This document shows, piece after piece, positions 1,203 through 29,277 of a DNA stretch of 30,755 bases. The position numbers and the translations under genes are program-made. The notes beneath the pieces were generated by a model. That model ran no database searches, was not told where the DNA came from, and saw nothing but the letters and a program-made list of their open reading frames with translations. Positions within the stretch are counted from its first letter, which is position 1. Every line of letters starts with the position of its first letter. Source of the DNA: Bacteroidales bacterium (lineage in GTDB: Bacteria; Bacteroidota; Bacteroidia; Bacteroidales; UBA932); NCBI GenBank assembly GCA_016281435.1, contig JAEEIQ010000086.1:1-30755 (forward strand), in the 5' to 3' direction.

Positions 1203-1239
1203 CGCCGTGAAAAATTCTATCCAACATATCAATAAAATC

Positions 1240-4200: not shown

Positions 4201-4605
4201 GAGGACATGAAGGCCTTCTGGACATTCGTCAACCAGGACAAGTACCTCCGCACCCACAAGGGACAGTATGCAGAGGCCTATTCCGCCCGTTCCCCCTGGC
4301 TCCATCAGTTCGACCTCCGCGTCGCGCAGGATGTCGCCATGAAGATCGGCAAGACTCTCCACAAGCTTGAGTTCTCCGTCGACCTGATGAACATCGGAAA
4401 CCTCATCAACCAGAACTGGGGCATCCCCCAGGTCCTCGACTGCAACAACGGCAAGCTCCTCAAGTGCACCAATGTCGAGAGTCTCTCTTCCACCGTCGCC
4501 CCCGTCTATCAGTTCGTGGGCAACAACGACCACACCTACACCCACAGCGGAGACTTCTACAACTGCTGGCAGCTCCAGTTCGGTGTAAGATATTTGTTCA
4601 ACTAA
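1240..4605 (+). CDS. TonB-dependent outer-membrane receptor, Oar-like
   Basis: A 1121-residue outer-membrane beta-barrel receptor, expected to import or bind an unknown large substrate using TonB energy. A signal peptide covers residues 1-23 (cleavage after AFA). A carboxypeptidase-regulatory-like beta domain spans about 27-110, with the GLVTDKNGEPLAGA motif. The LKEVVLVAS segment at about 118-125 is a plausible TonB box. The plug domain at about 130-237 (TVDGANFNN, then FVGGGMNAITKSGTNKY) resembles the Oar family of Myxococcus and Bacteroidota rather than SusC. The rest is aromatic-rich barrel ending in a phenylalanine-containing strand (VRYLFN). The ATG at 1240 was preferred to a GTG at 1207 because the signal peptide begins there and the -7 box is too close to 1207. 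The next gene, a lipoprotein, starts 18 bases downstream and is the likely partner. Codon use is extremely biased, with no TTA, CTA or TCA, which suggests high expression. Substrate unknown. Confidence 0.9.
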   Translation: MRHSFKSFLSSLAAMLLVVPAFAQITTSALNGLVTDKNGEPLAGAVVIAVHVPTGSQYYAVANSQGQYAIKGMRAGGPYEVNISTLGYQTVVVKDITLQLGEAYGLNAALKDASQQLKEVVLVASATSFSEEKTGPATNISLGQINSLPTVSRSITDIAKYSPYSNGMSIAGGDGRSTNFTVDGANFNNNFGLSSSLPGGGSPISMDAIQEVQVVVAPFDVRQTNFVGGGMNAITKSGTNKYRATIYTYHYNDKTHGVNAHGTKAEVPDMYERHVYGGTVGGPIIKDKLFFFVSAERISQPGMITNWRAWQDGDPTESDGTPKADTKKQISRTKAEDLANVADALKQRFGYDTGSYSSFPAETTNTKLLGRIDWNINADHKLAVRYNWTQNLEWKPTNGNSSDASTRHSGNRLGSQYSHSYLNSCYNMQNNVSSIAVDLNSRIGDKMHNQLLVTYTSIADIRGTYSDEFPFIDILYKDPAVSGSVSPYISAGYELFTYNNGVYNKIINVKDDFTYDLGKHHFLAGVSFEHQFANNAYMRNGTGYYRYRSLADFYAANGYDPVSHSLIDPDMSVAPETVNLTYGYNGATNPTAQVTFNQIGFYLQDEWDVTRNFKLTYGVRFDALIFDEKDIMRNQAMYDVDYNGKHVDTGKWPAAHITPSPRVGFNWDVFGDRSLKVRGGAGLFTGRLPLVFFTNMPTNSNMIQNKGVITTKWNGKVATPSGDLASFAGPMIVKKEDLLKKMNEVNPALFPLDIKPEDGVLGSSSINGVDPDFKMPLVAKFSLGADYKVPVDFPMTVSAEGVFNKTVYGVRMTNYNVKDNSDWDRLPGADNRLIYPTSYKYVATDAFVLTNTTQGYGYSANITVNATPIPALRLMASYTKMEQKEITGMPGSDASSAYTGLYTVNGPEFAVLQRSRYVRPDRVIASASWTQKWKGLEGFDTHVSLFYEGYSAGGYSFYYDNDLNRDGVSNDLIYIPSKPTELKWASAEDMKAFWTFVNQDKYLRTHKGQYAEAYSARSPWLHQFDLRVAQDVAMKIGKTLHKLEFSVDLMNIGNLINQNWGIPQVLDCNNGKLLKCTNVESLSSTVAPVYQFVGNNDHTYTHSGDFYNCWQLQFGVRYLFN

Positions 4606-4623
4606 CGGATACCGTATAAGGAT

Positions 4624-7107
4624 ATGAAACGTATATTCAACATAATCGCGGTCCTTGTCGCCGGTGTGCTCGTCGCATCCTGCTACAAGCCCGAAATCGG
4701 AGCCTCCAGCATCGAGCTCAACAAGGCCGAGGCTGCGTTCGAGGCTACATCTCCGGCAGCGGTCACCCTTACCGTGACCGCCAACGGAGACTGGTATGTC
4801 TATGCTCCCGACTGGATTACCGCCGAGCCCGTCGAGGGCAGCGGCAACGGGGAGGTCAAACTCACGGCCAAGGCCAACACCAACTCATACGGCGAAGTCG
4901 TCGCTCCCCGCAAGGATGTCGTGACCGTATGGAGCATCGACGGTCCTTCGGCCAACCTTTCGGTCAGCCAGAACGGCCTGAAGGCCCTCGACGTCACCCG
5001 TACCTATGCCAAGGTGACCAAGGCGGACGATATCGACCTTACCAAGAAGTTCATCATCGTCGCCGACAACGGCGGCACCCTGCAGGCCATGACGTTCTTC
5101 AACCAGACCGACAAGGGTGATGCATACTATTCCTACATCGACGCGGAGAAAGTGGCCGCGAATGACGAGGGCGTCATCGAGTATGCCGGCAACAAGATCC
5201 AGTACACGCTGGAAACTGCCACCGGTGCTGAGGGCTATTTCCTGACGATGCCCAACGGCTTCTATCTCTACCAGAACGACGACACTTACCAGAACTTCTA
5301 TTCCACCCAGGATGCGACCAAGGCCAGCCGCTGGACCATCGCTTTCGAGGAGGACGGAACTGCGAAGATCGTCAACGCTTCGACAACGGGCAATCCCAAG
5401 ACCGTCGTCTACGACAAGGACCACAACAATTTCGGCGGGTACGTCGAGAAGAACCTCGGTCCTTGCATCATCCCGTCCCTGTACATCGACCAGGCTGCTC
5501 CTTCAATGGAGATCCTCAGGGCTGCCGAGAAGGTCACCGCCATCTCCGCCGCCGGCGAGGTGAAAATCAGCGTGAACGCCAACTGCGACTGGACCGTCCG
5601 CAACCATGACAGCTGGGTCAAGGACTTCACCAAGTCCGGCACCGACGACGGCGACATCACCGTGACCCTCGAGGCCAACACCACCGGCAAGGCGCGTGAG
5701 GCCAAGTTCCAGATCATCGGCGAGGAGACCAGCATCTTCGTCACCCTCGTCCAGATGACCCCCTGCAAGACCATCGGCGAACTCAACAAGGCTGTCGCGG
5801 CCGGCACCACCAACTATGAGATCGTCCTCAAGGATGTCATCGTCAAGTATGTCAACGGCAGCAACGCGTTCCTCGTGGATGAGACCGGAGGTATCCTGCT
5901 CTACAAGAGCGGCCACGGGCTCACTGCAGGCAAGAAGATCAACGGCGGCATCAGCGGTACCGCAACCGTGTACAACAACCTCAACGAGCTGACTTCCATC
6001 GTGAAGGGATCCGACTTCGCCGAGACCGACGCAACTGCGGACGAGATGGCCCCGAAGGAGATTACCTTCGAAGAGCTCAAGGCTAACTTCGACAAGTATG
6101 TCAATATGCTCGTTCTCGTGAAGGGTGTGGAGATCACTACCGGAGTCAGCAGCTCCGCCAAGTCCGGCGAGGTCAAGCAGGGCGAGATCACGTTCCCCAG
6201 CTACCTCAAGGGTAGTGCCACCATCACTACCGGCTCGAAGGGCGACCTTGTCTGCGTCCCCGCTTACAACAAGACCACCAAGCAGGTTCAGATCTGGGCC
6301 CAGGATCATTTCACAGCCTCCGAGATCGTAACCAGCCTCAAGGTGGCGGACCTGTCCATCGAGGTCGGCGAAAGCAAGACCGTCACCGTCACCAAAAATA
6401 CTGACGCCACACTGAGCTTCTCCTCCACGGATACCGGTGTTGCTACCGTCGATGCAGACGGAAAGGTTACCGGTGTCGCTGCCGGTGAAACGACCATCAC
6501 GGTCAGCGCTCCCGCTGTGACCGGAACTCCCTCCTACACGGCAGCGTCGATCACCTTCAAGGTGACCGTGACTGCCGCCGCCGACAAGCGGCATATCGGA
6601 AAGGTCGCCAAACTCGTTCCCGGTGACTATTACCTGGCCTGCCACGTCCCCAACAAGGACGTAGCCAACAATAACAATGAGGCGCTGGTAGGATGGCATC
6701 TTTTCTGTGGATCGTTTACCAGCAACCAGGGTGTTACCGAGAAGGTCACCTATGATGAGACGACTGAAGAACTCAGCGGTATTACCAACGCCGTCGTAGT
6801 TACGCTTGAGGCGGCCACCAATAAAGATGAATACTACATCTCCTGGGAAGTCGGCAGCACCAAGTACTATATGGCACATGGTTCCTCACAGACCAACCTT
6901 ACCCGGAAAACGAGCAAAGACGACGCACAGATATTCAAGGCATCCGACGGTGTGGCCGAGGGTATCTTTATGACCGGAACCCTCGAGAAGGGTATTTCCG
7001 GAGGCATTGTCAAATGCAGCGTTGGCGGTTCCCAGAGGCTTATGAGGTCTTACGCCCCTACCTCCAAGGCCGACTACGGCGTATGGTTCATTAAGAAGGA
7101 CAAATAA
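4624..7107 (+). CDS. Large surface lipoprotein with BACON, OB-fold-like and Big2 domains
   Basis: An 827-residue lipoprotein with signal peptide and lipobox (LVASC, lipidated Cys20), probably displayed at the cell surface. The first BACON-like beta domain is at about 23-118 and a second at about 292-378 (CDWTV...). An OB-fold-like DUF5689-type region covers about 379-564 (AFLVDETGGILLY), followed by a Big2 Ig-like domain at about 572-651. Two other regions, about 119-290 and 655-827, appear to be diverged copies of one beta-rich module. No catalytic motif was seen, so a binding or scaffold role is likely. It lies 18 bases after the Oar-like receptor and before a strong terminator, so the two form a receptor/lipoprotein pair, analogous in layout but not in sequence to SusC/SusD. 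An AAGGA lies almost against the start codon, too close for a normal Shine-Dalgarno. Ligand unknown. Confidence 0.85.
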   Translation: MKRIFNIIAVLVAGVLVASCYKPEIGASSIELNKAEAAFEATSPAAVTLTVTANGDWYVYAPDWITAEPVEGSGNGEVKLTAKANTNSYGEVVAPRKDVVTVWSIDGPSANLSVSQNGLKALDVTRTYAKVTKADDIDLTKKFIIVADNGGTLQAMTFFNQTDKGDAYYSYIDAEKVAANDEGVIEYAGNKIQYTLETATGAEGYFLTMPNGFYLYQNDDTYQNFYSTQDATKASRWTIAFEEDGTAKIVNASTTGNPKTVVYDKDHNNFGGYVEKNLGPCIIPSLYIDQAAPSMEILRAAEKVTAISAAGEVKISVNANCDWTVRNHDSWVKDFTKSGTDDGDITVTLEANTTGKAREAKFQIIGEETSIFVTLVQMTPCKTIGELNKAVAAGTTNYEIVLKDVIVKYVNGSNAFLVDETGGILLYKSGHGLTAGKKINGGISGTATVYNNLNELTSIVKGSDFAETDATADEMAPKEITFEELKANFDKYVNMLVLVKGVEITTGVSSSAKSGEVKQGEITFPSYLKGSATITTGSKGDLVCVPAYNKTTKQVQIWAQDHFTASEIVTSLKVADLSIEVGESKTVTVTKNTDATLSFSSTDTGVATVDADGKVTGVAAGETTITVSAPAVTGTPSYTAASITFKVTVTAAADKRHIGKVAKLVPGDYYLACHVPNKDVANNNNEALVGWHLFCGSFTSNQGVTEKVTYDETTEELSGITNAVVVTLEAATNKDEYYISWEVGSTKYYMAHGSSQTNLTRKTSKDDAQIFKASDGVAEGIFMTGTLEKGISGGIVKCSVGGSQRLMRSYAPTSKADYGVWFIKKDK

Positions 7108-7131: not shown

Positions 7132-7167
7132 TCAGCCCCGCGCCTAATGGTGCGGGGCTGATTTTTT
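7132..7167 (+). terminator. Intrinsic terminator closing the receptor/lipoprotein unit
   Basis: A perfect 10-bp stem TCAGCCCCGC (7132-7141) / GCGGGGCTGA (7152-7161) has a 10-base loop and is followed by six T at 7162-7167. It lies 24 bases after the lipoprotein stop codon. Confidence 0.93.
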
Positions 7168-7199: not shown

Positions 7200-7207
7200 T
7201 ATATTTG
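7200..7207 (+). promoter_or_regulatory. Probable -7 box (TATATTTG) for the nuclease/receptor operon
   Basis: TATATTTG matches TAnnTTTG exactly, 33 bases after the end of the upstream terminator and 40 bases before the ATG at 7248. A second partial match (TATTTG) lies just upstream at 7192-7197. No convincing -33 TTTG was found at the usual spacing. The leader is A-rich (AAAACAAACGATAA), as is common at Bacteroidota start sites. With no terminator seen before 24154, this promoter could serve up to eleven genes. Confidence 0.65.
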
Positions 7208-7247: not shown

Positions 7248-9473
7248 ATGAAACTCAAGCATTACCTATTCGCCGTGCTGGCAGGAGCGCTTCTTGCCGC
7301 AGGCTGCGAAAAGAACGAGGACCCCATGGCCCTCAAGGCCGATATCAAGGCCGCAGTCGAGACCGTCACCTTCACCCAGGAGATGGGCACGAAGGAGATT
7401 GAACTGACCTCGACCCGTGACTGGAAGCTCAACGCCTACGAAGAAGGAGTCGACTGGGTCTCCGTGACTCCCGAAAGCGGCTCCGCCGCCGTGAAGGCGC
7501 AGAAACTCAGCGTCACCGTCCGCGCCAACACCGGCCACGACCGTGAGACGGACCTCAGCTTTACGAACGGCACGAAGACCATCGCCGTCCATGTCTACCA
7601 GGCCGGCCCCCAGGGCCCCGGCGGCCCTATTTTCCAGGCCAAGTTCGATAACAGCCTCAGCGGGTTCACCGTCGAAAACAAGATGACCCTGGCCGAGGGC
7701 GTCGAGATCTGGACTGCCGACAGCCACGGCTACGCCAAGGCCACCGGTAAGATAGGCAGCACCTTCCATGCTTCCGACAGCTACCTCGTTTCGCCCGTCA
7801 TCGACCTGAACGGGGAAGCCGCCGCATGGCTGCAGTTCCGCCATGCCTCTTACAGTTCGGCCGTCTCCAAGGACGCGTCGGTGCTCATCCGCGAAGAGGG
7901 ACAGACCACGTGGACCAAGCTGGAGCCGGAAACCTGGCCCAACGGTTACACATTCATCGCCGCGGGCGACATCGACCTGAAGGACTGGCTTGGCAAGAAG
8001 ATCCAGATAGCCTTCCGCTTCACTTCCACCGCCTCCGCCAGCGACACCTGGGAGGTTGACAACGTGCAGGTCAGCCGCGAGGCTACTCCCGTCGTCGAAT
8101 GCGCGACCGTCGCCGACGTCGTTGCGCAGAAGAACAACACGAAGGTCCATGTGTCGAACATGACCGTCCAGCTCGTCTATGCCCACGGATATCTCGTTTC
8201 CGACGGGACCGATTATCTCCTTGTCTATCTCGGAGAAGAAGAGACCCCGACCGTCAAGGCCGGAGACGTCCTGTCCATGGATGCCACCCTGACCTTCTAC
8301 GGCACTAGCGGAGCGCCCAAGACCTATCCCCAGCTGGTTTCCCCGAAGAACATGGAGACTACGGCGACGGGACGCACGGTGACCATGCCCGAGCCCTCCG
8401 ACCTTACCCCGACCTTCGGAACGTTCAGCATCGACCCCGCGACCAAGTACCTGAAGTACTACAAGGTCAACGGCAAGATTTCGGTATCCGGCGAGTACAT
8501 CAACTTCAACGTAGACGGCGTCACCGACAGGACCGGTTCCGTCATTGCCTCCGATGGCATGGAAAGCCCCGCCGCCTTGAACGGGCTCGACTGCACGATC
8601 ACCGGATTCTTCGTCTATGCTTCCGGAAAGTCCAACCAGTACATCACCTTCCTTGCCACTGACATTTCCATCAAGGCAGGCTATCTGCAGGCCTCTCCCA
8701 CCGAAATGAGGGTCGGGGCCGACAGTACCTGGGCCGAGATCAGCATCAAGTCCGATCTCGAATGGACCATCCCCGCCGTCGAAGGCGTCAGTTTCGACAA
8801 GAGCAGCGGCAAGGGCGACGGCAAGGTGAAGGTCACCTTCGGCGCCAATACTGCGTTCTCGGCCAGGACCGTGACCGTTGTGGTGACTGCCGGCCAGATC
8901 AGCTCTTCCGTAGTGATCAGCCAGGTCGCCGCGGTCGATCCCAACGCGAAGACCGCCGAATTGACGAACGCTGAGATAGTGGACGCCTTGACCAAGAACA
9001 ACGCGACTGTCACGACTTATACCGACTTCACTTTCCCCAGCGCATCCGGCAGCTGGGCCGCCAATGTCAGCGCCCACAAGGACAACACATATGTCCAGAT
9101 CCGCAACAGCAAGGGAGCATATATCATGACCCCGGCGTTCTCCACCGAGATAACCAAGATCGAGTTCGTCACGGATGCGACAAAGGGCAACCAGTCAAGG
9201 ACCGTCCATGTCATGCCTGCCGACTTCAAACTGCCCGGCGGCAAGAACGATGCCGACAACCAGGACGCTTATAATGCGGCATCCAAGCCTACGGCCGAGA
9301 ATCCCAACTCGAAGGCCGTCACGGACGCTTCCCTCGGGTCCGTCAAGACCAGCACGACTGCAGGCGAAACCTGGACGATCGAAGTGAAGCCCGGCCACAA
9401 GCAGGTCATGATCATAGCCTACGACGGGGCCGTCTACATGTCCTCCATCAAGGTTTATCTCAAGAGCGAATAA
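7248..9473 (+). CDS. Surface lipoprotein with BACON, choice-of-anchor-J-like and OB-fold-like domains
   Basis: A 741-residue lipoprotein with lipobox LAAGC (Cys20). A BACON-like domain spans about 35-120 (RDWKLNAYEEGVDWVSVTP). A jelly-roll of the choice-of-anchor-J / MAM-like type follows at about 127-278 (SYLVSPVIDL near 178, DTWEVDNVQV near 266). A DUF5689-type OB-fold-like region covers about 283-475, and a second BACON-like domain about 482-565 (LEWTIPAVEGVSFDKSSGKG). A beta-rich C-terminal domain of about 170 residues is unassigned. No catalytic residues were recognised; binding is the probable role. It is the first gene after the promoter and lies 3 bases before the NUC1-type nuclease gene. 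In that context it may hold nucleic acid or another polymer at the surface for the enzymes downstream. That assignment is inference from context and the OB-like fold. Confidence 0.85.
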   Translation: MKLKHYLFAVLAGALLAAGCEKNEDPMALKADIKAAVETVTFTQEMGTKEIELTSTRDWKLNAYEEGVDWVSVTPESGSAAVKAQKLSVTVRANTGHDRETDLSFTNGTKTIAVHVYQAGPQGPGGPIFQAKFDNSLSGFTVENKMTLAEGVEIWTADSHGYAKATGKIGSTFHASDSYLVSPVIDLNGEAAAWLQFRHASYSSAVSKDASVLIREEGQTTWTKLEPETWPNGYTFIAAGDIDLKDWLGKKIQIAFRFTSTASASDTWEVDNVQVSREATPVVECATVADVVAQKNNTKVHVSNMTVQLVYAHGYLVSDGTDYLLVYLGEEETPTVKAGDVLSMDATLTFYGTSGAPKTYPQLVSPKNMETTATGRTVTMPEPSDLTPTFGTFSIDPATKYLKYYKVNGKISVSGEYINFNVDGVTDRTGSVIASDGMESPAALNGLDCTITGFFVYASGKSNQYITFLATDISIKAGYLQASPTEMRVGADSTWAEISIKSDLEWTIPAVEGVSFDKSSGKGDGKVKVTFGANTAFSARTVTVVVTAGQISSSVVISQVAAVDPNAKTAELTNAEIVDALTKNNATVTTYTDFTFPSASGSWAANVSAHKDNTYVQIRNSKGAYIMTPAFSTEITKIEFVTDATKGNQSRTVHVMPADFKLPGGKNDADNQDAYNAASKPTAENPNSKAVTDASLGSVKTSTTAGETWTIEVKPGHKQVMIIAYDGAVYMSSIKVYLKSE

Positions 9474-9476
9474 ACC

Positions 9477-10640
9477 ATGCGCTGCAGAGTCCTTGTCCCG
9501 CTGCTTCTGGCGGGCCTCCTCGCCGGGGCCTGCCAGAAGCCGGAGGACGGACCTTCCGTCCCGCTGGCCGTAGCGGTCCGCAATTCCAACGGAGGCCCGG
9601 AGAAGGACGACGTGTTCGTATCTGTCAAGTACAGCGGGGACTGGACCCTCAGCGTCACGGGACTTGACGGCGCCGAGATAGACTGGGCGCGTCTTTCCGT
9701 GTATTCCGGAAACGGGGAGAAGAATGACATCATCCTCGACTACGATGCCAACACCGGCACCGAAGACAGGGTGGTGGAAGTCCATGCAGTTTCCGACAAG
9801 GGTGAAGAGACCGTGGCCTCCTTCGTGCAGTACTGGCGCGCCGTTGGCCGCTACCACGAGGACGTGATGCCTTCGGGCTGGCTGGAACTGCCCGAGAAAA
9901 AGTCCGGCCTCGAGTTCTACACCCATCCTATGCACTTCGGCTCCGTCAACTGCCGCAACTACTCCTTTGCCTACGACCGCTCGAAGTTGGTCTCGTGGTG
10001 GGTGGCCTACCCCCTGAACGACGACCTTATCGGCGGCGGTTCCCGCACGGATGCCTGGGGCTACGACCCCAAGCTCCCGGAGAGTGCCCAGCAGAGGCTA
10101 GCCGGCGGCTACAAGACCTCCGGCTACGACCGCGGCCACCAGTTGCCCTCGGCCGACCGTCTCAGCCGCATCGCCAACATCGAAACCTTCTACTACACGA
10201 ACCTGACTCCCCAGAAAAGTGCCTTCAACCAGGGCATGTGGGGTACGCTCGAAGACAAGGTGCGCGTCTGGGCCAGGGCGATGGATACCCTCTATGTCGT
10301 GACGGGCTGCCAGGTGGAGGAGCCCCTCGGGTATGCCAGTGACAACGACTGGACCGAAGTCGCTATCCCGTCCGCATACTTCAAGGCTCTCGTAGGCTAC
10401 AAGAAGAACCCTACTTACGGCGTCCAGCCCCAGACGGGCGGGTACACCGGCGTCGCGTTCTGGTACAGGCACGATGTCTCCGAACGCGACTGGACCAGTG
10501 GTCAGATGACCATAGACCGGCTGGAAGAGATCCTGGGTTATGACCTGTTCGTAAACCTCCCCGCCAAGATAGGCGAAAGCAAGGCCGCCCTAGTGGAGTC
10601 CACTTCGGAATCATGGTGGAAATCATTCGTAAACAAATGA
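9477..10640 (+). CDS. Lipoprotein DNA/RNA non-specific endonuclease (NUC1/NucA type, beta-beta-alpha-Me)
   Basis: A 387-residue exported nuclease. Signal peptide with lipobox LAGAC (Cys19), so it is lipid-anchored, probably outside the cell. Residues about 40-120 form a BACON-like beta domain, and about 140-385 form the catalytic domain. The family signature DRGH is present at 218-221 (YDRGHQLPSADR), with His221 as general base. Asn251 in AFNQGMWGTLED is the expected metal ligand and Glu259 a further conserved acid. Enzymes of this family cut single- and double-stranded DNA and RNA to oligonucleotides using one Mg2+ ion; specificity here is not known. The gene starts 3 bases after the OB-fold lipoprotein stop, and its stop overlaps the next start as ATGA. 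Catalytic residues look intact. A BACON domain fused to this nuclease suggests attachment to a surface or to a bulky substrate. Confidence 0.93.
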   Translation: MRCRVLVPLLLAGLLAGACQKPEDGPSVPLAVAVRNSNGGPEKDDVFVSVKYSGDWTLSVTGLDGAEIDWARLSVYSGNGEKNDIILDYDANTGTEDRVVEVHAVSDKGEETVASFVQYWRAVGRYHEDVMPSGWLELPEKKSGLEFYTHPMHFGSVNCRNYSFAYDRSKLVSWWVAYPLNDDLIGGGSRTDAWGYDPKLPESAQQRLAGGYKTSGYDRGHQLPSADRLSRIANIETFYYTNLTPQKSAFNQGMWGTLEDKVRVWARAMDTLYVVTGCQVEEPLGYASDNDWTEVAIPSAYFKALVGYKKNPTYGVQPQTGGYTGVAFWYRHDVSERDWTSGQMTIDRLEEILGYDLFVNLPAKIGESKAALVESTSESWWKSFVNK

Positions 10641-11707
10641 AAAAAGCATTTCTTATCATCCTGGCCGCCGCGCTGCTGATGCCCGGCCCCGGCGCGTCCG
10701 CCCAGAAAAAGGATTATGTGATAGGGTTCTACAATCTCGAGAACCTTTTCGACATCTATGACGACCCGGCGAAGAACGACGAGGAGTACCTGCCCGACGG
10801 CAAGAACAAGTGGACCCAGGAACGCTACGAGATAAAGGTTTCCAACATGGCGCGCGTCATCCGGGCCATGAGGGACGACAACAAGCGCTGGCACACCATC
10901 CTCGGCGTGAGCGAGATCGAGAACCGCCTCGTCCTCGAGGACCTCGTGAGCGATCCCCAGATCGCCGCGGCGAACTACCAGATCGTCCACTATGACGGTC
11001 CTGACCGCCGCGGAGTGGACGTGGCCCTGCTCTACAAGCCGGACCAGTTCAAGTATCTCGACAGCGAGTCCATCCCCTTCACCTTCGAGGGGACGAAGGT
11101 CCCGATCACCCTCGACCAGGCTGCGCAGGACTATTTCCGCACCCGCGACATCCTGATGGTCCACGGCATGATGGCGGGGGAGGAGTTTGCATTCTATGTC
11201 GCCCATACCCCGTCCCGCCGCGGCGGCAAGGGCGGTGACCTCCGCTGCCGCTGCACGGAAATAATCTACAACCACTCCCGCTACATGGAGCAGAAGTATC
11301 CAGGCATCAAGATCGTGGTCATGGGCGACATGAACGACGATCCGACAGACGACAGCCAGAAGGTATGGCTGCACGGCAAGCCCACCATCGCCGAGACCGG
11401 TCCCGGGGACTTCTTCGATCCCTTCGAGGTCATGCTCAAGGCCGGATACGGCTCGCTCGCGTACCAGGGCAAATGGAACATCTTCGACATCATCCAGGTC
11501 AACCATACCCTTGCTGCGGCCCCCTCCGGCGGACTCAGGATACGTCCCATCGTGAAGGGCAAGTACTATGGACGCATTTTCGTCAAGCCTTTCATGACCC
11601 AGCAGAGCGGTCCCTACAAGGGCACTCCTTTCCGCACCTTCTCCGGAGGCGCCTTCGTGGGCGGCTATTCCGACCATTATCCGACTTATATCGTGATCAG
11701 CAAATGA
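10637..11707 (+). CDS. Secreted endonuclease/exonuclease/phosphatase (EEP) family enzyme
   Basis: A 356-residue enzyme with a cleavable signal peptide (cleavage after GASA, about residue 22) and no lipobox, so periplasmic or secreted. EEP motifs occur in order: NLEN (33-36), SEIEN with metal-binding Glu93, VAHTPSR with His190, GDMND with Asp231 and Asn233, and SDHYP with Asp346-His347. The superfamily includes DNase I-like nucleases, exonuclease III, and phosphodiesterases or phosphatases acting on other substrates, so substrate is not fixed by motifs alone. Next to a NUC1-type endonuclease, a nuclease or nucleotide phosphatase role is favoured. The ATG at 10637 is chosen over an in-frame upstream start at 10613 because it gives a clean signal peptide and an ATGA overlap with the preceding stop. 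Its own stop overlaps the receptor start the same way, indicating translational coupling. Confidence 0.9.
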   Translation: MKKAFLIILAAALLMPGPGASAQKKDYVIGFYNLENLFDIYDDPAKNDEEYLPDGKNKWTQERYEIKVSNMARVIRAMRDDNKRWHTILGVSEIENRLVLEDLVSDPQIAAANYQIVHYDGPDRRGVDVALLYKPDQFKYLDSESIPFTFEGTKVPITLDQAAQDYFRTRDILMVHGMMAGEEFAFYVAHTPSRRGGKGGDLRCRCTEIIYNHSRYMEQKYPGIKIVVMGDMNDDPTDDSQKVWLHGKPTIAETGPGDFFDPFEVMLKAGYGSLAYQGKWNIFDIIQVNHTLAAAPSGGLRIRPIVKGKYYGRIFVKPFMTQQSGPYKGTPFRTFSGGAFVGGYSDHYPTYIVISK

Positions 11708-14640
11708 AAAAGATAATCATTGCAGCCGCGCTGCTCCTGTCCGTCGTCCTGCCGGCCGCGGCACAGGGCCTGACCGGCGGCATCAAGGCTTCTATCGTCA
11801 GCCGCGCCGGCAGGGCCCCCATCGAGGGAGCCACCGTCGAGCTGTACCGTAGCGGCGAGAAAATCACCGGCGCCCGTTCCGATTCAGGTGGCGGGTTCCT
11901 GTTCGACCGCCTGGACGACGGCAACTACAACATAAGGGTCTCGGCCCCGGGATTCACGGAGACTGAAATCAACGTCACCGTCGAGAAGGGCCTGATGCGG
12001 GATCTGATCTTCGTGACCATGACCCCTTCGACCCAGGTCAGCGAGGCGGACGATTCCAATTTCGCCGAGTTCGACCTCGACGATTCCGGCTACAACGACG
12101 CCCCGACCATCCTGTTTGCGGCCAACGACGTGTTCAGCAACGTGGCCGGATACGGCTTCAGCGCCATACGTTTCAAAAACCGCGGTTACAATTCCGAAAC
12201 CCAGGACGTGTATCTTGCCGGAGTGCGCATGAACGACGCGCTCACCGGGTACAGTCCCTACTCCCTGTGGAGCGGCCTCAACGAGGCCACCCGCAGCAAG
12301 GAGTCGGTGACCGGCCTGGACATTTCCGAGCTTGGTCCCGGCGGCTACAACGGGGCCACCTTCATCCACGCCAATCCCAACTCGGTGCGTCCGGGACTGC
12401 GTTTTTCGCTGCTCAGCAACAGCGCCCTGTACCGCCTGCGCCTCATGATGAATTACGCCTCAGGCAGGAAGGACAACGGCTGGTCCTATGCGGTCAACGC
12501 CAGCGCCCGTCTCGGCGGCAACGACTGGATCGACGGTGTGTTCTACCGCTCCTTCGCCCTGTATGCCGGTGCCGAGAAGCGCATCGACAGCGAGCGCAAC
12601 ATCGCCTTCATCGTGATGGTGGCTCCCGGCCAGAGGGGTGCCCAGAACGCCTCCACCCAGGAGGTTTACGACCTCATGGGCGACAATCTCTACAACTCGA
12701 ACTGGGGCTACCAGGACGGCAAGGTCCGCAACTCCAGGGTGCGTTCCACCTTCGAGCCCATCCTGGCCATAAAGTACGACAAGACCCCTTCCGACGAGTT
12801 CAAGACCTCGACGACCCTCCTGTGGCGCACCGGCTGGAACGGCTATACGGCCCTCGACTGGTACGACGCCTCGGACCCGAGGCCCGACTACTACCACAAC
12901 CTTCCTTCCTATTTCTATATGGAGGATGAGGACTACAACCGCAGCAACGAATTCAAGGCCGCCCTCGCCCGTGAAACCTGGAATCCCCGTATCCGGGATT
13001 ATGCCAATTTCCAGCACCTGGACTGGGACCGCCTGTACAACGTGAACTACAATGCGGGAGGACGCAGCAAATACGCCCTCGAAGAACGCCATGTGGACCA
13101 GAACGACGTCAATTTCGTCTGGAACTTCCGCTGGCGTCCGTCCGACGCGGCCCGGCTCAACGGCGGCATCGACCTGAAGCTCAACGAGACCCGCAACTAC
13201 AAGAAGATGAACGACCTGCTCGGGGGCGAGTACTTCCTCAACATCGACAGTTTCGCCGAAAGGGACTTCGCCACTAACGAGTTCAAGATACAGAACGACC
13301 TCGACTGGTACATGGATCACGGGCAGGCGCAGAAGATACGCAAGGGCGACCGTTACGGCTACGACTATTCCGCGAGCATACGCAAGGCCCGCGCCTGGGC
13401 TGACGGGAGCTGGACTTCCGACAACCTCACGCTGACCGGTGCCGCCACTCTCGGAGTCGAATCCTTCTGGCGTACGGGCCATGTCCGCAAGGGCCTATTC
13501 GCGGGCCTGGACGACATGGGGCGCGACATGTATGACCTCTCTACCGGCGCGAAACTCACCACCTACGATGCGGACGGGAACGTCATCACTTCGAAGGGCC
13601 GTTCCGCCGTCAGCACCTTCCTGACCTGGTCCGCCAAGGCCGGAGCGCAGTATGTCATCGGCAGCCGCCAGAGGGTCGCCGCCACCATCGGTTACTTCAA
13701 CGACGCCCCGACTTTCAGCCAGGCCTTCATCTCCGCCCGCACGAGGAATTCCCTCGTCAAGGGTCTTACCACCATCAAGACGGCTTCTGCCGACCTGACC
13801 TGGCAGTACAGCGGCGGGGGAGTGGACGCGCGCGTGACGGGCTACTGGACCAAGATAATGGACCAGACCGACATCATGAGTTTCTACGACGATTCGCAGC
13901 ATTCGTTCACGAACTTCGCCATGACGGGCATCGACCAGAGGCATGTGGGCGTCGAAGCCGGCGTGAAGGTCCCCCTGTTCATCAGCGGCCTTACCGCCTC
14001 CGCGGTCCTGAGCCTCGGCGAGTATGTCTATACGAGCACTCCGCACATGGTCCAGACCGTGGATAACAGCTCCGAGGTCGTCCGCAGCGAGGACGTTCCC
14101 TATTGGAAGGACCATCCGGTCTATGCCACGGACGTGGACGGCAATTACGAGCTGACCCTGAACGGGGATTATGTCGCCTCCGGAAGGAAGAAGCACTATG
14201 TGCCGAGTACCCCCCAGCTGGCTTCAGAGCTGGCCCTGAACTACAGGACCAACAGTTACTGGTTCTTCGAGCTGAACGGGCAGTACTTCGCCCATTCTTA
14301 CCTAGACATGAACCCCCTGTACCGCACTGAATTCGCGGTCGGCGGAATCGACGGAATCATCACTCCGGCGGAGGTCGGCTACATGGCCTCGCAGGAGGAA
14401 TTCGCCCCTGCTTTCCTGCTCAATTTCAGCGCGGGCAAGAGCTGGTTCATAGGCGATTACAATCTCGGTTTCTCCTTCGAGGTGAAGAACATGCTGAACA
14501 ACCGCGGCGTCAGGACCGGCGGCTACGAGCAGACCCGCCTCATCAAGAGCGCCGGCAAGGACCGCTACTACCGCTTCGACCCCAAGTATTTCTACATGTG
14601 CGGGGCCAATTACATGTTGAACATCTATTTCAGATTCTAA
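11704..14640 (+). CDS. TonB-dependent outer-membrane receptor of the nuclease operon
   Basis: A 978-residue receptor. Signal peptide 1-20 (cleavage after AAA), then a carboxypeptidase-regulatory-like domain at about 26-107 (APIEGATVELYRSG; GNYNIRVSAPGF). A strongly acidic linker follows at about 114-132 (EADDSNFAEFDLDDSGYND). The plug-like domain at about 133-230 contains AIRFKNRGYNSETQDVYLAG. A long aromatic-rich beta-barrel ends in IYFRF, the aromatic C-terminus typical of outer-membrane barrels. The plug is atypical: the usual VDG is replaced by LAGVRMND and no clear TonB box is visible. It lacks the STN domain seen in the SusC at 25809, so it does not appear to signal to a sigma factor. 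The ATG at 11704 overlaps the EEP stop (ATGA); a longer frame upstream is only a shadow of the EEP gene. Import of nuclease products is inferred from operon position. Confidence 0.9.
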   Translation: MKKIIIAAALLLSVVLPAAAQGLTGGIKASIVSRAGRAPIEGATVELYRSGEKITGARSDSGGGFLFDRLDDGNYNIRVSAPGFTETEINVTVEKGLMRDLIFVTMTPSTQVSEADDSNFAEFDLDDSGYNDAPTILFAANDVFSNVAGYGFSAIRFKNRGYNSETQDVYLAGVRMNDALTGYSPYSLWSGLNEATRSKESVTGLDISELGPGGYNGATFIHANPNSVRPGLRFSLLSNSALYRLRLMMNYASGRKDNGWSYAVNASARLGGNDWIDGVFYRSFALYAGAEKRIDSERNIAFIVMVAPGQRGAQNASTQEVYDLMGDNLYNSNWGYQDGKVRNSRVRSTFEPILAIKYDKTPSDEFKTSTTLLWRTGWNGYTALDWYDASDPRPDYYHNLPSYFYMEDEDYNRSNEFKAALARETWNPRIRDYANFQHLDWDRLYNVNYNAGGRSKYALEERHVDQNDVNFVWNFRWRPSDAARLNGGIDLKLNETRNYKKMNDLLGGEYFLNIDSFAERDFATNEFKIQNDLDWYMDHGQAQKIRKGDRYGYDYSASIRKARAWADGSWTSDNLTLTGAATLGVESFWRTGHVRKGLFAGLDDMGRDMYDLSTGAKLTTYDADGNVITSKGRSAVSTFLTWSAKAGAQYVIGSRQRVAATIGYFNDAPTFSQAFISARTRNSLVKGLTTIKTASADLTWQYSGGGVDARVTGYWTKIMDQTDIMSFYDDSQHSFTNFAMTGIDQRHVGVEAGVKVPLFISGLTASAVLSLGEYVYTSTPHMVQTVDNSSEVVRSEDVPYWKDHPVYATDVDGNYELTLNGDYVASGRKKHYVPSTPQLASELALNYRTNSYWFFELNGQYFAHSYLDMNPLYRTEFAVGGIDGIITPAEVGYMASQEEFAPAFLLNFSAGKSWFIGDYNLGFSFEVKNMLNNRGVRTGGYEQTRLIKSAGKDRYYRFDPKYFYMCGANYMLNIYFRF

Positions 14641-14644
14641 GGCC

Positions 14645-15793
14645 ATGAAGAAGTTTTTTTACGCAACCCTGGCGCTGCTCACGCTCGCTTCCTGCCAGTC
14701 TCTGATCGAAGAGTTCCAGCCGGTATTCACCGGGAAGTACAAGGACGTCCCGGCTGAAGAAACCGAAACCATGACCCGCACCCACAGCATCGCCCAGCTG
14801 GCGGCGCTGTACACCCCCGGCGAAGGGGACGACAACGAGGTCAAGCTCACTCCCAAGAACGGGAAGGACATCATCATAGCCGGACGGGTCTGCACTTCCG
14901 ACCAGGCCGGTAATTTCTACAAGAGCCTTTACATCCAGGACGAGACCGGGGGCATCGAGCTGAAGTTCGGCAAGAACGGCCTCTACAACGACTACAGGCC
15001 CGGACAGTGGGTATATGTGAACTGCAGCGGACTGTATCTCGGGATGTATGGCTGGAAAGCCCGCAACACCACTTACAACAACGGTGGCAACGGCATGGTC
15101 CAGCTCGGGCTGGACGATCCTTCGAACAGCTACGAGACGTCCTACATCGAGGAGTCCCGCTTCATTTCCGAGCATTTCTTCAAAGGAGAGATAGTCGAGG
15201 ACGCTCCCGGCGTTCCCGTTGCCCCGAAGGTGGTTTCCTCTTCCGCCGCCCTTCCCAAGTGGAGCGACACCCAGGCGACCAACAGCAACGTAGGGCGTCT
15301 CGTGACCCTGAAGAACCTCAGTTACGGAGCCCAGGTGTTCGCCCTGCTGTATGTCGATTCCAACAAGGACAAGAAAGCTTCGTCGAACCGCGTTTTCATC
15401 TCTGATGGCGTCTTCGGCATCACTTCCTGGGCCCTCTCCGAGGCGAAGTTCAAGGAAACCCTGGATTCCGGGGTATGGGACGAGATCAAGCTCGGCAACT
15501 CCGGGGACTACAACTACGGCACCGTCGCGGAGCACAAGGACGAGCTGCGCAAGAACGCGGAAGCCGTGTCCGTGAGCCAGTATTTCCAGATGGAGGACGG
15601 TACCGAGATACAGATCCGCACCAGCGGCTTCTCGAAATTCGGTGACTACGAGATTCCGGCCGACGTGATCGCCGGCCGCAAGATAGACGTCACCGGCATA
15701 GTCTCCCTTTATCAGGGATCCATCCAGTTTACAGTCAATTCATACGAAGATTTCCGTTATTCGGATAACGGCAAGACCCTTCCTAAACAATGA
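14645..15793 (+). CDS. OB-fold-like (DUF5689-type) surface lipoprotein
   Basis: A 382-residue lipoprotein with lipobox LASC (Cys17). Residues about 45-215 have the DUF5689/OB-fold-like pattern: an N-terminal SIAQLAALY helix, a glycine-bounded strand IIIAGRVCTSD, then SLYIQDETGGIELKF and PGQWVYVNCSG. A second beta region of similar style follows (NVGRLVTLKNLSYG; PADVIAGRKIDVTGIVSLY). Similar OB-like segments occur in the lipoproteins at 4624 and 7248. No enzymatic motif was recognised; the lipid anchor and position suggest a ligand-binding partner of the receptor, much as SusD partners SusC, although it is not SusD-like. It starts 4 bases after the receptor stop, and its own stop overlaps the next start as ATGA. 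DUF5689 membership is my recognition of the pattern and needs a profile search. Confidence 0.83.
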   Translation: MKKFFYATLALLTLASCQSLIEEFQPVFTGKYKDVPAEETETMTRTHSIAQLAALYTPGEGDDNEVKLTPKNGKDIIIAGRVCTSDQAGNFYKSLYIQDETGGIELKFGKNGLYNDYRPGQWVYVNCSGLYLGMYGWKARNTTYNNGGNGMVQLGLDDPSNSYETSYIEESRFISEHFFKGEIVEDAPGVPVAPKVVSSSAALPKWSDTQATNSNVGRLVTLKNLSYGAQVFALLYVDSNKDKKASSNRVFISDGVFGITSWALSEAKFKETLDSGVWDEIKLGNSGDYNYGTVAEHKDELRKNAEAVSVSQYFQMEDGTEIQIRTSGFSKFGDYEIPADVIAGRKIDVTGIVSLYQGSIQFTVNSYEDFRYSDNGKTLPKQ

Positions 15794-17802
15794 AACGAAT
15801 CATTACCGCGGCCCTGACCGCCCTGCTTATGGCATCCTGCGCACCCAATCCCTTCCTTTCGGAATGGGATACCCCTTACGGGATCCCCGCTTTCGACAAG
15901 ATAAAGAATTCCCATTACCTTCCGGCCGTCAAAAAGGGCATAGCCCTGCATGACGCCGAGATCGAGGCGATAGTCTCCAATCCCGAGGCTCCTACCTTCG
16001 AGAACACCGTCGTGGCTTTCGACCGCAGCGGAGACGTGCTCGCCAGGGTGACCGCAGTGCTCTTCAACCTCAGTGAGAGCGACTCCAGCCCGGAGCTGGA
16101 CGCCATAGTCGAGAAGGCCATGCCCCTCGTCTCCGAGCACGGGGACGAAATCATGATGGACAAGCGCCTGTTCGAAAGGGTGAAGGCCGTGTGGGAAGGG
16201 GACAGGAGCGGACTGTCGAGGGAACAGGAAATGCTCCTGAAGAACCTCTACGAGGGATTCCTCGATAACGGCATAGGCCTCGACGAGGCTTCGCAGGAGC
16301 GGCTCAAGGCCGTCAACAGCGAGCTTTCTTCGCTATCCCTGAAGTTCGGCAACAACCTGCTTGCGGAAAGCAACGCCTTCAAGGCCGAATTCGGATTCTC
16401 CGTCGCCAACTACTATGACCGCATGGCTTCGACTGCCGACAGGGCCCTGCGCGAGAAGATATTCAAGGCCTATTCGACCCGCTGCGACAATGGCGGGGAC
16501 AATGACAACAAGGCTGTCCTCCGCCGCATCCTGCAGCTGCGCATCGAAAAGGCCCGCCTGCTCGGCTACGACACCCCGGCGGCGCAGATCCTGCACGACA
16601 AGATGGCAGGGAACCCTGAGACCGTGGATGCTTTCCTCGCCGAGATAATGGACGCCGCGATGAAGCGCGCCCGGCAGGAAGTCGCCGACATGCAGAAGGA
16701 AATGGACGCCGATATCGCCGCAGGACGTCTTCCCGACGGCTCGAAGATAGAGCCCTGGGACTATATGTACTATGCAGAGAAGGTGCGCAAGGCCCGCTTC
16801 GATTTCGATGAGAGCGAGGCCATGCAGTACTTCAAGATGGAGAACGTGCGCGCCGGCGTGTTCGGCAACGCATCCCGTCTCTACGGCCTGCAGTTCGAGC
16901 CCGTCGAAGGCGTCGCCCTGTACAACCCCGAGGCTGAGGCCTTCAAGGTCAGCGACTCCGACGGTTCGCTCATAGGCATCATCATTACGGACTACTATCC
17001 CCGCGACAGCAAGAGGGCCGGGGCCTGGATGACCAACTTCTGCGAACAGTACCGTCTGCCCGACGGAAGCGACGTGCGCCCCGTGATAGTCAACGTGGGC
17101 AATTTCAACAAGCCTTCGGAAGACACCCCCGCGCTTCTGACCATAGACCAGGTCGAGACCATGTTCCATGAGTTCGGCCATGCCCTGCACGGACTTCTGA
17201 GCAAGTGCAGCTACAGGAGCCTGAGCGGGACTGCGGTGAAGCGCGACTTCGTGGAACTGCCCTCCCAGATCAACGAGAACTGGGCCTTCCAGCCCGAGGT
17301 CCTGTCGACCTACGCCTTCCACTGGAAGACAGGGGATGTCATCCCTGCGGCCCTCGTGAAAAAGATAGGGGAGGTGGCCAATTTCAACCAGGGCTTTTCC
17401 ACGGGTGAACTTGCCGCCGCCTCGATCCTCGATATGAAATGGCATGAACTCGCGGAACTGTCCGACGACGCCGACATCGATGCACTAGAGGCAGGATTCT
17501 GCAAGGAAATGGGACTTATCGGAGAAATCATTCCCCGCTACCGCAGCACCTATTTCAACCATATATTCGGCTCCAGCGGCTATTCCGCCGGCTACTACAG
17601 CTACCTCTGGGCCGAAGTCCTCGACAAGGACGCCTTCGAGCTCTTCAAGCAGAAGGGAGTTCTCGACAAGGATACGGCGATGAGTTTCCGCCGCAACATA
17701 CTCGAAAAGGGCGGAAGCGAGGAGCCCATGGTCCTGTACAAGGCCTTCCGCGGTGCCGATCCCGACCCCGCGGCCCTGCTCCGTGCCCGCGGACTTGAAT
17801 AA
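15790..17802 (+). CDS. M3 family zinc metallopeptidase (peptidyl-dipeptidase Dcp-like), lipoprotein
   Basis: A 670-residue member of the thimet oligopeptidase / Dcp family, which cleaves short peptides; Dcp enzymes release C-terminal dipeptides. The signal peptide carries a lipobox (MASC, Cys17), so the enzyme is membrane-anchored and exported, unlike the cytosolic E. coli Dcp and OpdA. The mostly alpha-helical body leads to the zinc motif HEFGH at 460-464 (His460, Glu461, His464), with third ligand Glu489 in FVELPSQINENW. The conserved tail segment SSGYSAGYYSYLWAEV is present. Length is normal for the family. It is translationally coupled to the OB-fold lipoprotein (ATGA overlap), so it belongs to the nuclease/receptor operon. 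It could trim peptides from nucleoprotein or from other surface digestion, or simply serve general peptide scavenging. The assignment to Dcp rather than OpdA is less sure than the M3 family. Confidence 0.93.
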   Translation: MKRIITAALTALLMASCAPNPFLSEWDTPYGIPAFDKIKNSHYLPAVKKGIALHDAEIEAIVSNPEAPTFENTVVAFDRSGDVLARVTAVLFNLSESDSSPELDAIVEKAMPLVSEHGDEIMMDKRLFERVKAVWEGDRSGLSREQEMLLKNLYEGFLDNGIGLDEASQERLKAVNSELSSLSLKFGNNLLAESNAFKAEFGFSVANYYDRMASTADRALREKIFKAYSTRCDNGGDNDNKAVLRRILQLRIEKARLLGYDTPAAQILHDKMAGNPETVDAFLAEIMDAAMKRARQEVADMQKEMDADIAAGRLPDGSKIEPWDYMYYAEKVRKARFDFDESEAMQYFKMENVRAGVFGNASRLYGLQFEPVEGVALYNPEAEAFKVSDSDGSLIGIIITDYYPRDSKRAGAWMTNFCEQYRLPDGSDVRPVIVNVGNFNKPSEDTPALLTIDQVETMFHEFGHALHGLLSKCSYRSLSGTAVKRDFVELPSQINENWAFQPEVLSTYAFHWKTGDVIPAALVKKIGEVANFNQGFSTGELAAASILDMKWHELAELSDDADIDALEAGFCKEMGLIGEIIPRYRSTYFNHIFGSSGYSAGYYSYLWAEVLDKDAFELFKQKGVLDKDTAMSFRRNILEKGGSEEPMVLYKAFRGADPDPAALLRARGLE

Positions 17803-24295: not shown

Positions 24296-24856
24296 TTGAA
24301 AGGTCAGGAAGAAATATTCAAGGCCAGATTCGACACTTATTTCAAGAGGTGTTCGGCGTTTGCCCGCTCGTTCGTTTCGGACAAGGCGGAAGCCGAACTG
24401 ATCGCTTCCGAGGCGATGACGGTGCTTTGGCAGAAAAGAGGGGAGGATGACGTGGACGTGGCGGCGGCGCTGCCCTTCCTTTTCGGGATAGTGCGCAACA
24501 AGGCCATGAACTACCTGAGGGGTAGGAGGCGTGAACAGGAAGCCCTCGGCAAGGCGGGCGAGATGGCTGTCCGGGAACTTGACCTCCGGATCGGAACTCT
24601 CGAAATGTGTGACCCTTCGATGCTCTACAAGGCAGATGTCCAGGCCATCATCAACGCGACTGTTGAAAGCCTTGGCGACAAGACTGCCGAAGTCTTTCTC
24701 AAGAGCCGTTACGAGGGTATGAGCAACAAGGAAATCGCCAGCCGGTTCGGGATCTCCGTCAAAACCGTCGATTACCATATCTCACGCGCGTTGAAAGCCT
24801 TACGCAGGAGCCTCGGAGACTATCTGCCCGTCGTCTGCATTTTTCTTTCCCTTTAG
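24296..24856 (+). CDS. ECF RNA polymerase sigma-70 factor (Bacteroidota FecI-like)
   Basis: A 186-residue extracytoplasmic-function sigma factor. Region 2 lies at about 10-78 (LPFLFGIVRNKAMNYLRGRR). Region 4 with a helix-turn-helix lies at about 113-173 (YEGMSNKEIASRFGISVKTV). The short hydrophobic tail YLPVVCIFLSL is common in Bacteroidales sigma factors paired with FecR. The only credible start is a TTG; the nearby ATG at 24279 is in another frame and stops after six codons. The next gene, 57 bases on, encodes the FecR-type anti-sigma factor, followed by an STN-containing SusC. The family model is that ligand binding at SusC relieves FecR inhibition and frees this sigma factor to raise susCD transcription. 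Start choice is less certain than identity. Confidence 0.92.
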   Translation: MKGQEEIFKARFDTYFKRCSAFARSFVSDKAEAELIASEAMTVLWQKRGEDDVDVAAALPFLFGIVRNKAMNYLRGRRREQEALGKAGEMAVRELDLRIGTLEMCDPSMLYKADVQAIINATVESLGDKTAEVFLKSRYEGMSNKEIASRFGISVKTVDYHISRALKALRRSLGDYLPVVCIFLSL

Positions 24857-24863
24857 ACTGGGG

Positions 24864-24883
24864 ATTTCCGAATTTCCGGAAAT
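24864..24883 (+). promoter_or_regulatory. Direct repeat plus 12-bp palindrome between the sigma and fecR genes
   Basis: ATTTCCG occurs at 24864-24870 and again at 24872-24878. The second copy forms the perfect palindrome ATTTCCGGAAAT at 24872-24883. The site is 8-27 bases after the sigma stop and 30 bases before the fecR start. It could be an operator or a small RNA hairpin; no T run follows, so it is not a standard terminator. Functional meaning is inference. Confidence 0.4.
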
Positions 24884-24913
24884 AATAAGGGTACAGGCTC
24901 ATAATACCTTGAA

Positions 24914-29276: not shown

Positions 29277-29277
29277 C

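What the first reader, a model, noticed from the sequence alone, without database searches (positions are those of the whole stretch)
7248..17802. Candidate surface nucleic-acid utilization operon: two secreted nucleases with an OB-fold lipoprotein/TonB receptor system
Seen: six tightly coupled genes (gaps of -4 to +4 bases) encode a BACON/OB-like lipoprotein, a lipoprotein NUC1-type nuclease, an exported EEP enzyme, a TonB-dependent receptor, an OB-like lipoprotein and an M3 peptidase lipoprotein. Known: NUC1-type enzymes degrade DNA and RNA, EEP enzymes cut phosphodiester or phosphomonoester bonds, OB folds often bind oligonucleotides, and TonB receptors import oligomers. Inference: capture, cutting and import of extracellular nucleic acid (as phosphate, carbon or nucleoside source), with the peptidase dealing with bound protein. 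I do not know of a characterised system with this exact set.
Basis: partly seen in the sequence, partly recalled or inferred. Interest (0 to 1): 0.78.

Follow-up and report, generated by a model that had tools for sequence, protein, structure and literature searches.

The report
Bacteroidota outer-membrane DNA uptake operon
A gut-type Bacteroidales genome carries a six-gene operon whose core, an outer-membrane importer and its surface lipoprotein, is related to the pair that a duck bacterium needs to take up DNA for natural transformation, here joined by two secreted nucleases, so it probably imports DNA and may make gut bacteria transformable.

Summary
Window 7248-17802 (+) holds six genes with gaps of -4 to +4 bases, behind a strong terminator. 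Among 80 named relatives with enough flank, EEP is beside the receptor in 76/76, NUC1 in 68/68 and DUF5689 in 76/76; the M3 peptidase in 44/64.

The reading changes. Receptor (full length) and DUF5689 lipoprotein match the Riemerella anatipestifer pair RA0C_RS04915/RS04920. Markerless deletion of either there abolishes natural transformation (PMC8459023). Its neighbour RS04910, which that text names once, is the same EEP family. Two domains of RS04920 are split here between g7 and g3. The module spans Bacteroidota: DUF5689 follows the receptor in 62/65 phylum and 40/40 Bacteroidales loci.

Best explanation: a TonB-powered outer-membrane DNA importer with surface nucleases, probably feeding ComEC-dependent transformation. 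Use as food is not excluded. Presence of ComEC or an HHH protein did not track the receptor. ComEC of 680 aa or more did, again in a second pre-specified set, without control for kinship.

The parts
7132..7161 (+). intrinsic terminator-like hairpin with T-run that separates g2 from the operon
   Evidence: 13 pairs, 10 G-C, TTTTTT tail
7200..7207 (+). TATATTTG, possible Bacteroidota -7 promoter element (consensus recalled)
   Evidence: one of two TAnnTTTG on the + strand of the window
7248..9473 (+). g3: lipoprotein, BACON + choice-of-anchor J; its residues 154-278 of the frame match the C-terminal part of the RS04920-type lipoprotein profile
   Evidence: two or more acidic residues after the lipid Cys in 46/52 relatives
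9477..10640 (+). g4: lipoprotein NUC1-type nuclease (Endonuclease_NS), DRGH motif intact
   Evidence: catalytic H, N, E in 75/75 aligned copies
10637..11707 (+). g5: exported EEP nuclease-like enzyme (Exo_endo_phos_3), same family as R. anatipestifer RS04910
   Evidence: motifs intact
11704..14640 (+). g6: TonB-receptor-like outer-membrane importer, RS04915 family
   Evidence: 26% identity over the full length to the L191 receptor, 1e-99; profile of 73 other receptors 734 bits, only window hit
14645..15793 (+). g7: DUF5689 lipoprotein, matches the N-terminal part of RS04920
   Evidence: two or more acidic residues after the lipid Cys in 62/65 relatives
15790..17802 (+). g8: M3-family peptidase lipoprotein, overlapping neighbour, not core
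   Evidence: present in 44/64 loci; 0/41 with an acidic tail

Best explanation
Genes 3-7 encode the Bacteroidales form of a phylum-wide outer-membrane DNA import system. The lipoproteins g7 (DUF5689, OB-like) and g3 (choice-of-anchor J), probably at the surface, bind extracellular DNA. The lipoprotein nuclease g4 and the exported g5 cut it, much as entry nucleases do. The TonB-receptor-like g6 passes the DNA, or one strand, into the periplasm. There a helix-hairpin-helix protein and ComEC would take it to the cytoplasm. Shown here: homology, conserved gene order, domain split, intact catalytic motifs, export signals. Shown by others in R. anatipestifer: the receptor and lipoprotein are each essential for transformation, and two TonB proteins affect it. 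Inferred: DNA as ligand in this lineage, TonB power, roles of the nucleases, and transformation rather than feeding as the main use.
For: 1) L191 reproduces the locus order and RS numbering of PMC8459023: RecA, four genes, ComEC, two genes, EEP (RS04910), receptor (RS04915), DUF5689 (RS04920) (RecA, ComEC, EEP, CarboxypepD_reg and DUF5689 confirmed by Pfam). Its receptor identities fit the paper (top value 77.01% there; L197 77.005%, though L196 is closer at 93.5%). Its genome was picked by size among hits of the lipoprotein model NF052645; the family searched had been reached through a receptor hit (G015).
2) Deleting RS04915 or RS04920 takes transformation from 5.4e-5 to below about 4e-10. 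tonBA or tonBB mutation inhibits transformation, and tonBA did not lower iron uptake in that medium.
3) g6 matches over its full length. A profile of 73 receptors (without L154, L155, L176 and the 80 named loci) hits g6 only, not the window's other receptors.
4) The RS04920-type profile hits g7 with its N-terminal part (140.7 bits) and g3 with its C-terminal part (42.8 bits, 2.3e-13).
5) DUF5689 lies downstream of the receptor in 62/65 phylum loci (61 within 0.7 kb) and 40/40 Bacteroidales loci. EEP lies within 1.5 kb in 44/65 and 27/40.
6) NUC1 H/N/E invariant in 75/75. A nuclease of this motif family is tied to competence in Moraxella (PMC6384898, title and start of abstract).
7) ComEC frames of 680 aa or more track the receptor: 32/37 v 18/37, then pre-specified 33/36 v 21/35.
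8) The relatives G001 and G1157 carry HHH_3 proteins.
Against: The pair is distant from the tested one (26-29% identity), and no member in Bacteroidales has been tested in any paper I saw. F. johnsoniae has the homologues but was not transformable as tested (PMC8459023). Presence of ComEC (37/40 v 37/40) and of the HHH protein (36/40 v 33/40) does not track the receptor. R. anatipestifer ComEC is itself only 605 aa; with a cut at 580 aa the length association weakens to 33/37 v 25/37 (p 0.046) and 34/36 v 26/35 (p 0.024), and kinship was not controlled. Two secreted nucleases fit feeding as well as entry. RS04910 is mentioned once in the paper's main text and no deletion of it is listed. 21 of 65 phylum loci and 13 of 40 Bacteroidales loci have no EEP nearby.
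Confidence: 0.6

Rival explanations
1. Nutritional nucleic-acid utilisation: surface nucleases cut DNA or RNA, the lipoproteins hold oligonucleotides and the receptor imports them as phosphate, carbon or nucleoside source.
For: Two secreted nucleases in the same operon. The lipoprotein is very common, 347 of 397 genomes of one family (unnamed by the tool; Flavobacteriaceae by my inference) hit by NF052645, more than known competence would suggest. Inner-membrane competence genes are present without the receptor too.
Against: The members tested in the papers I saw are essential for transformation. Removal of phosphate lowers transformation in R. anatipestifer. No SusD in the operon. No nucleoside transporter or salvage enzyme among g1-g8 by profile; the other window genes were not profiled.
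Confidence: 0.25
2. Dual use: one importer whose product goes both to ComEC and to nucleotide salvage, with the nuclease-rich operons shifted towards feeding and the nuclease-poor ones towards transformation.
For: NUC1 is present in only a part: within the fetched stretch in 4 of 65 phylum loci and 7 of 40 Bacteroidales loci, against 68/68 of the close relatives.
Against: No functional data; EEP alone is widespread, so a nuclease is not special to the window.
Confidence: 0.12
3. Release from DNA-based traps or biofilm: the nucleases act outward and the receptor imports something else.
For: A secreted nuclease of this motif family is linked to biofilm in Moraxella (PMC6384898, title).
Against: Does not explain the tight, phylum-wide link of nuclease with receptor and lipoprotein, nor the transformation phenotype.
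Confidence: 0.03

Closest known systems
Riemerella anatipestifer RA0C_RS04915-RS04920 natural transformation pair (PMC8459023)
   Same: Receptor homologous over the full length; DUF5689 lipoprotein next to it; EEP enzyme next to it
   Different: Here one collinear operon with EEP on the same strand, an added NUC1 nuclease and M3 peptidase; lipoprotein domains split over g7 and g3; 26-29% identity; function untested
SusC/SusD nutrient importers of Bacteroidota
   Same: TonB-receptor-like protein with CarboxypepD_reg domain and lipoproteins in one operon
   Different: No SusD homologue; the receptor has no SusC hit in Pfam or NCBIfam
Entry nucleases EndA (pneumococcus) and NucM (Moraxella), DRGH beta-beta-alpha-metal family
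   Same: g4 is in the Endonuclease_NS family with the catalytic residues intact
   Different: g4 is a predicted lipoprotein encoded with an importer; role in entry untested (that EndA belongs to PF01223 is recalled; the papers were seen only in the listing)

Membership tests
R. anatipestifer-type outer-membrane transformation pair | Outer-membrane receptor of the RS04915 family | tested here: met
   26% over 1023 aligned columns, 1e-99; profile 1-925 of 925; only window hit
R. anatipestifer-type outer-membrane transformation pair | DUF5689 lipoprotein encoded directly downstream | tested here: met
   4-base gap
R. anatipestifer-type outer-membrane transformation pair | Choice-of-anchor J domain fused to the DUF5689 lipoprotein | tested here: not met
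   Not fused: the domain lies on g3 of the same operon. Hence 'variant', not plain member
R. anatipestifer-type outer-membrane transformation pair | Required for natural transformation | not testable with these tools
   No experiment in this lineage
R. anatipestifer-type outer-membrane transformation pair | HHH protein and ComEC present in the genome | tested here: inconclusive
   The window's genome is not held. Relatives: HHH_3 proteins in G001 and G1157; ComEC in G1157 interrupted by a TGA; ComEC in G001 not searched
SusCD-like polysaccharide utilisation locus | SusD-family lipoprotein with a SusC-type receptor | tested here: not met
   No such hit among g3-g8
Endonuclease_NS (NUC1-type) | Family match and catalytic H, N, E | tested here: met
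Exo_endo_phos_3 (EEP) | Family match and E, H, D-N, SDH motifs | tested here: met
   each motif in 77-78 of 78 copies of the named loci, 42-47 of 48 phylum and 28-30 of 30 Bacteroidales copies. Substrate not testable
Type IV pilus-type competence | Secretin and pilus genes | not tested
   No whole genome held for the window

The most novel reading that the evidence does not exclude
Uncultured gut Bacteroidales (Candidatus Cryptobacteroides and kin) are naturally transformable through a TonB-powered DNA importer of the outer membrane that carries its own surface entry nucleases, a DNA-uptake route shared across Bacteroidota and unlike the known competence machines.
Probability: 0.42. Interest if true: 0.88.

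Novelty: new variant of a known kind. Interest (0 to 1): 0.72.

Why it matters
How DNA crosses the outer membrane in Bacteroidota, a main phylum of the gut, is an open question. The paper that found the R. anatipestifer pair called it a machinery of its own and left the nuclease that turns double-stranded into single-stranded DNA unidentified; on spread it says both that the homologues are wide in Bacteroidetes and that the receptor was found only in Flavobacteriaceae. This work shows the receptor, lipoprotein and a nuclease as one module across the phylum, puts candidate nucleases (EEP, NUC1) beside the importer, and names gut lineages in which natural transformation could be tested.

Tried and rejected
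Own-genome searches: no genome is held for the window.

Structure prediction: switched off, so the barrel and OB folds are not modelled.

Solved structures: none credible by sequence for g5-g7 (two hits listed, E 0.64 and 0.0083). g3 and g8 were not searched there.

ComEC as a neighbour in other genomes: present in 60 of 60 but on no contig position within about 20 kb of the receptor, so uninformative there; in L191 it is close.

Co-occurrence of HHH protein or ComEC with the receptor: no association (one HHH hit of the receptor-less set, G1236, lies in a 755-aa frame and may be another protein). The ComEC length difference was seen after the fact in set 1; the criterion was then written down and repeated in set 2. 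Sets: 40 and 40, then 40 and 36, of the genomes; matches between 1e-30 and about 1e-179 were left out; kinship and contig ends were not controlled. At 580 aa instead of 680 the p values are 0.046 and 0.024.

Direct g3 v RS04920 BLASTP found nothing (E 0.83); only the profile sees the relation.

A role for the M3 peptidase as core part was rejected. GpmI follows g8 in only 10 of 43 loci.

Literature: nine answered searches; no listed title deals with this operon in Bacteroidales. The lists are capped and only open-licence PMC papers are held.

Full report
WHAT IS THERE. The window is from Bacteroidales: the few named relatives of the receptor are Bacteroidales or Candidatus Cryptobacteroides. 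Six + strand genes from 7248 to 17802 have gaps of -4 to +4 bases, three of them ATGA overlaps (the g4-g5 one if g5 starts at 10637). A 13-pair terminator-like hairpin at 7132-7161 lies before them, and a TAnnTTTG motif at 7200. Domains: BACON and choice-of-anchor J (g3), Endonuclease_NS (g4), Exo_endo_phos_3 (g5), CarboxypepD_reg receptor (g6), DUF5689 (g7), Peptidase_M3 (g8).

CONSERVATION. A scan of named genomes with the receptor alignment gave 452 relatives, of which the best 80 were kept; their titles read Bacteroidales, Bacteroidia, Candidatus Cryptobacteroides, Bacteroides sp. or Rikenellaceae. Counting only loci with enough flank: g5 76/76, g4 68/68, g7 76/76, a g3-like frame 52/57, g8 44/64. 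In a phylum-wide sample 75 of 392 genomes matched at 1e-10. I fetched the 65 loci with E of about 1e-48 or better other than the query genome's own; nine weaker ones were not fetched. Of these 65, 61 have DUF5689 on the same strand within 0.7 kb downstream of the receptor, one more (L176) behind a receptor broken into two frames, and 3 have none. EEP is divergent upstream in 41, on the same strand upstream in 2, downstream within 1.5 kb in 1, and not nearby in 21. In Bacteroidales (order of G001) 170 of 247 genomes matched at 1e-30, 114 of them at about 1e-179 or better (my count). Of 40 loci that I chose from the 170, mostly strong ones, 40 have DUF5689 next to the receptor, 24 have EEP divergent, 3 collinear and 13 not nearby; NUC1 lies within the stretch in 7, in the window's order in 3. 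First-look filters make the genome counts lower bounds.

THE LINK TO TRANSFORMATION. A full-text search for DUF5689 and TonB found one paper: PMC8459023, in which transposon and markerless mutants of R. anatipestifer RA0C_RS04915 (CarboxypepD_reg outer-membrane protein) and RS04920 (DUF5689, DUF5017, choice-of-anchor J) lose transformation (I read the abstract, sections 18, 20, 21 and passages). To reach that locus I used the NCBIfam model NF052645 (lipo_M949_1556), which matches g7 and g3 in part and, in 5 of 7 fetched DUF5689 proteins of other genomes, nearly the whole protein. In the family of G015 (unnamed by the tool), 117 of 296 genomes exceed its cut-off. One of them, G913, has a contig of 2,164,087 bp and gives L191. 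There RecA, four genes, ComEC, two genes, EEP, receptor and DUF5689 stand in the order and number that the RS numbers of the paper require; Pfam confirms the five named ones. The published type-strain length is 2,155,121 bp (PMC3111989, passages); a second assembly of 2,164,087 bp is recalled. Receptor identities to other genomes agree with the paper's values, such as 77.01%, but one fetched genome (L196) is closer, at 93.5%. So RS04910 is an EEP protein; the paper's main text names it once, as an upstream gene whose transcription did not change.

HOMOLOGY OF THE WINDOW. g6 against the L191 receptor: 26% identity over the whole length, 1e-99. g5 against RS04910: 28%, 2e-52. g7 against RS04920: 29% over 169 columns, 6e-12. 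A profile from 73 receptors outside the named relatives (L154, L155 and L176 left out) hits g6 alone among all window frames of 80 aa or more (734 bits, positions 1-925 of 925), not the other two receptors of the window. Most of that set had been gathered by similarity to the window's family, so the hit itself is expected; the specificity and full coverage are the result. The matching lipoprotein profile (70 sequences) hits g7 with its positions 7-277, in two pieces, and g3 with 322-458. This ties g3 to the system by domain split.

SURFACE AND CATALYSIS. After the lipid cysteine, two or more acidic residues occur in 46/52 g3, 62/65 g7, 37/57 g4 and 0/41 g8 copies in which a lipobox was found. 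A K-(D/E)2 or Q-A-(D/E)2 signal sends lipoproteins to the surface in this phylum (PMC5080379, abstract); my count is a loose form of it. NUC1: H, N and E in 75/75, D of DRGH in 42/75. EEP motifs in 77-78 of 78 named-locus copies, 42-47 of 48 and 28-30 of 30 in the wider sets.

TRANSFORMATION OR FOOD. For transformation: the mutants; TonBA and TonBB needed for normal transformation (PMC8383284, abstract and passages); a DRGH nuclease involved in competence in Moraxella (PMC6384898, listing). Presence tests do not decide: ComEC 37/40 against 37/40 and HHH protein 36/40 against 33/40 in genomes with and without the receptor (p = 1 and 0.52). ComEC frames of 680 aa or more were commoner with the receptor: 32/37 against 18/37 (p = 0.001, seen after the fact), then 33/36 against 21/35 (p = 0.002) in a second set with the criterion written beforehand. 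Kinship is not controlled, some ComEC frames lie at contig ends, R. anatipestifer is competent with 605 aa, and a cut at 580 aa gives only p = 0.046 and 0.024. Against: F. johnsoniae has the homologues but was not transformable as tested.

VERDICT. DNA import by g6 with g7 and g3 is likely; transformation as its main use is more likely than not; the nucleases are most simply entry nucleases. It is a new variant of the R. anatipestifer kind, shown here as a nuclease-bearing module across the phylum.

Noticed in passing
window 1207-7107: A TonB-type receptor (OMP_b-brl_4, CarboxypepD_reg) and a BACON/Big_2 lipoprotein lie upstream as a separate unit; a g1-like receptor is upstream in 17 of 48 relatives with enough flank.
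   Followed up: partly
window 24296-30753: Sigma-factor-like, anti-sigma-like, SusC-like and SusD-like genes in a row, a separate nutrient locus by my reading of the translations (not profiled).
   Followed up: no
G1228 and other genomes: A second, weaker receptor group (E about 1e-40 to 1e-112), sometimes in the same genome as the strong one; a paralogous family with unknown partners.
   Followed up: no
genomes: Bacteroidales without the receptor often have ComEC frames under 680 aa, as if the transformation gene were shortened there.
   Followed up: partly
L232, L239, L241, L247, L270 and others: Two or more DUF5689-like frames in 17 of 40 Bacteroidales loci, mostly in tandem behind the receptor.
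   Followed up: no
L191:15728-17131: The NCBI family lipo_M949_1556 covers the DUF5689 lipoproteins next to this receptor in related genomes; that its name comes from an R. anatipestifer locus studied for antigenicity and pathogenicity is recalled.
   Followed up: partly
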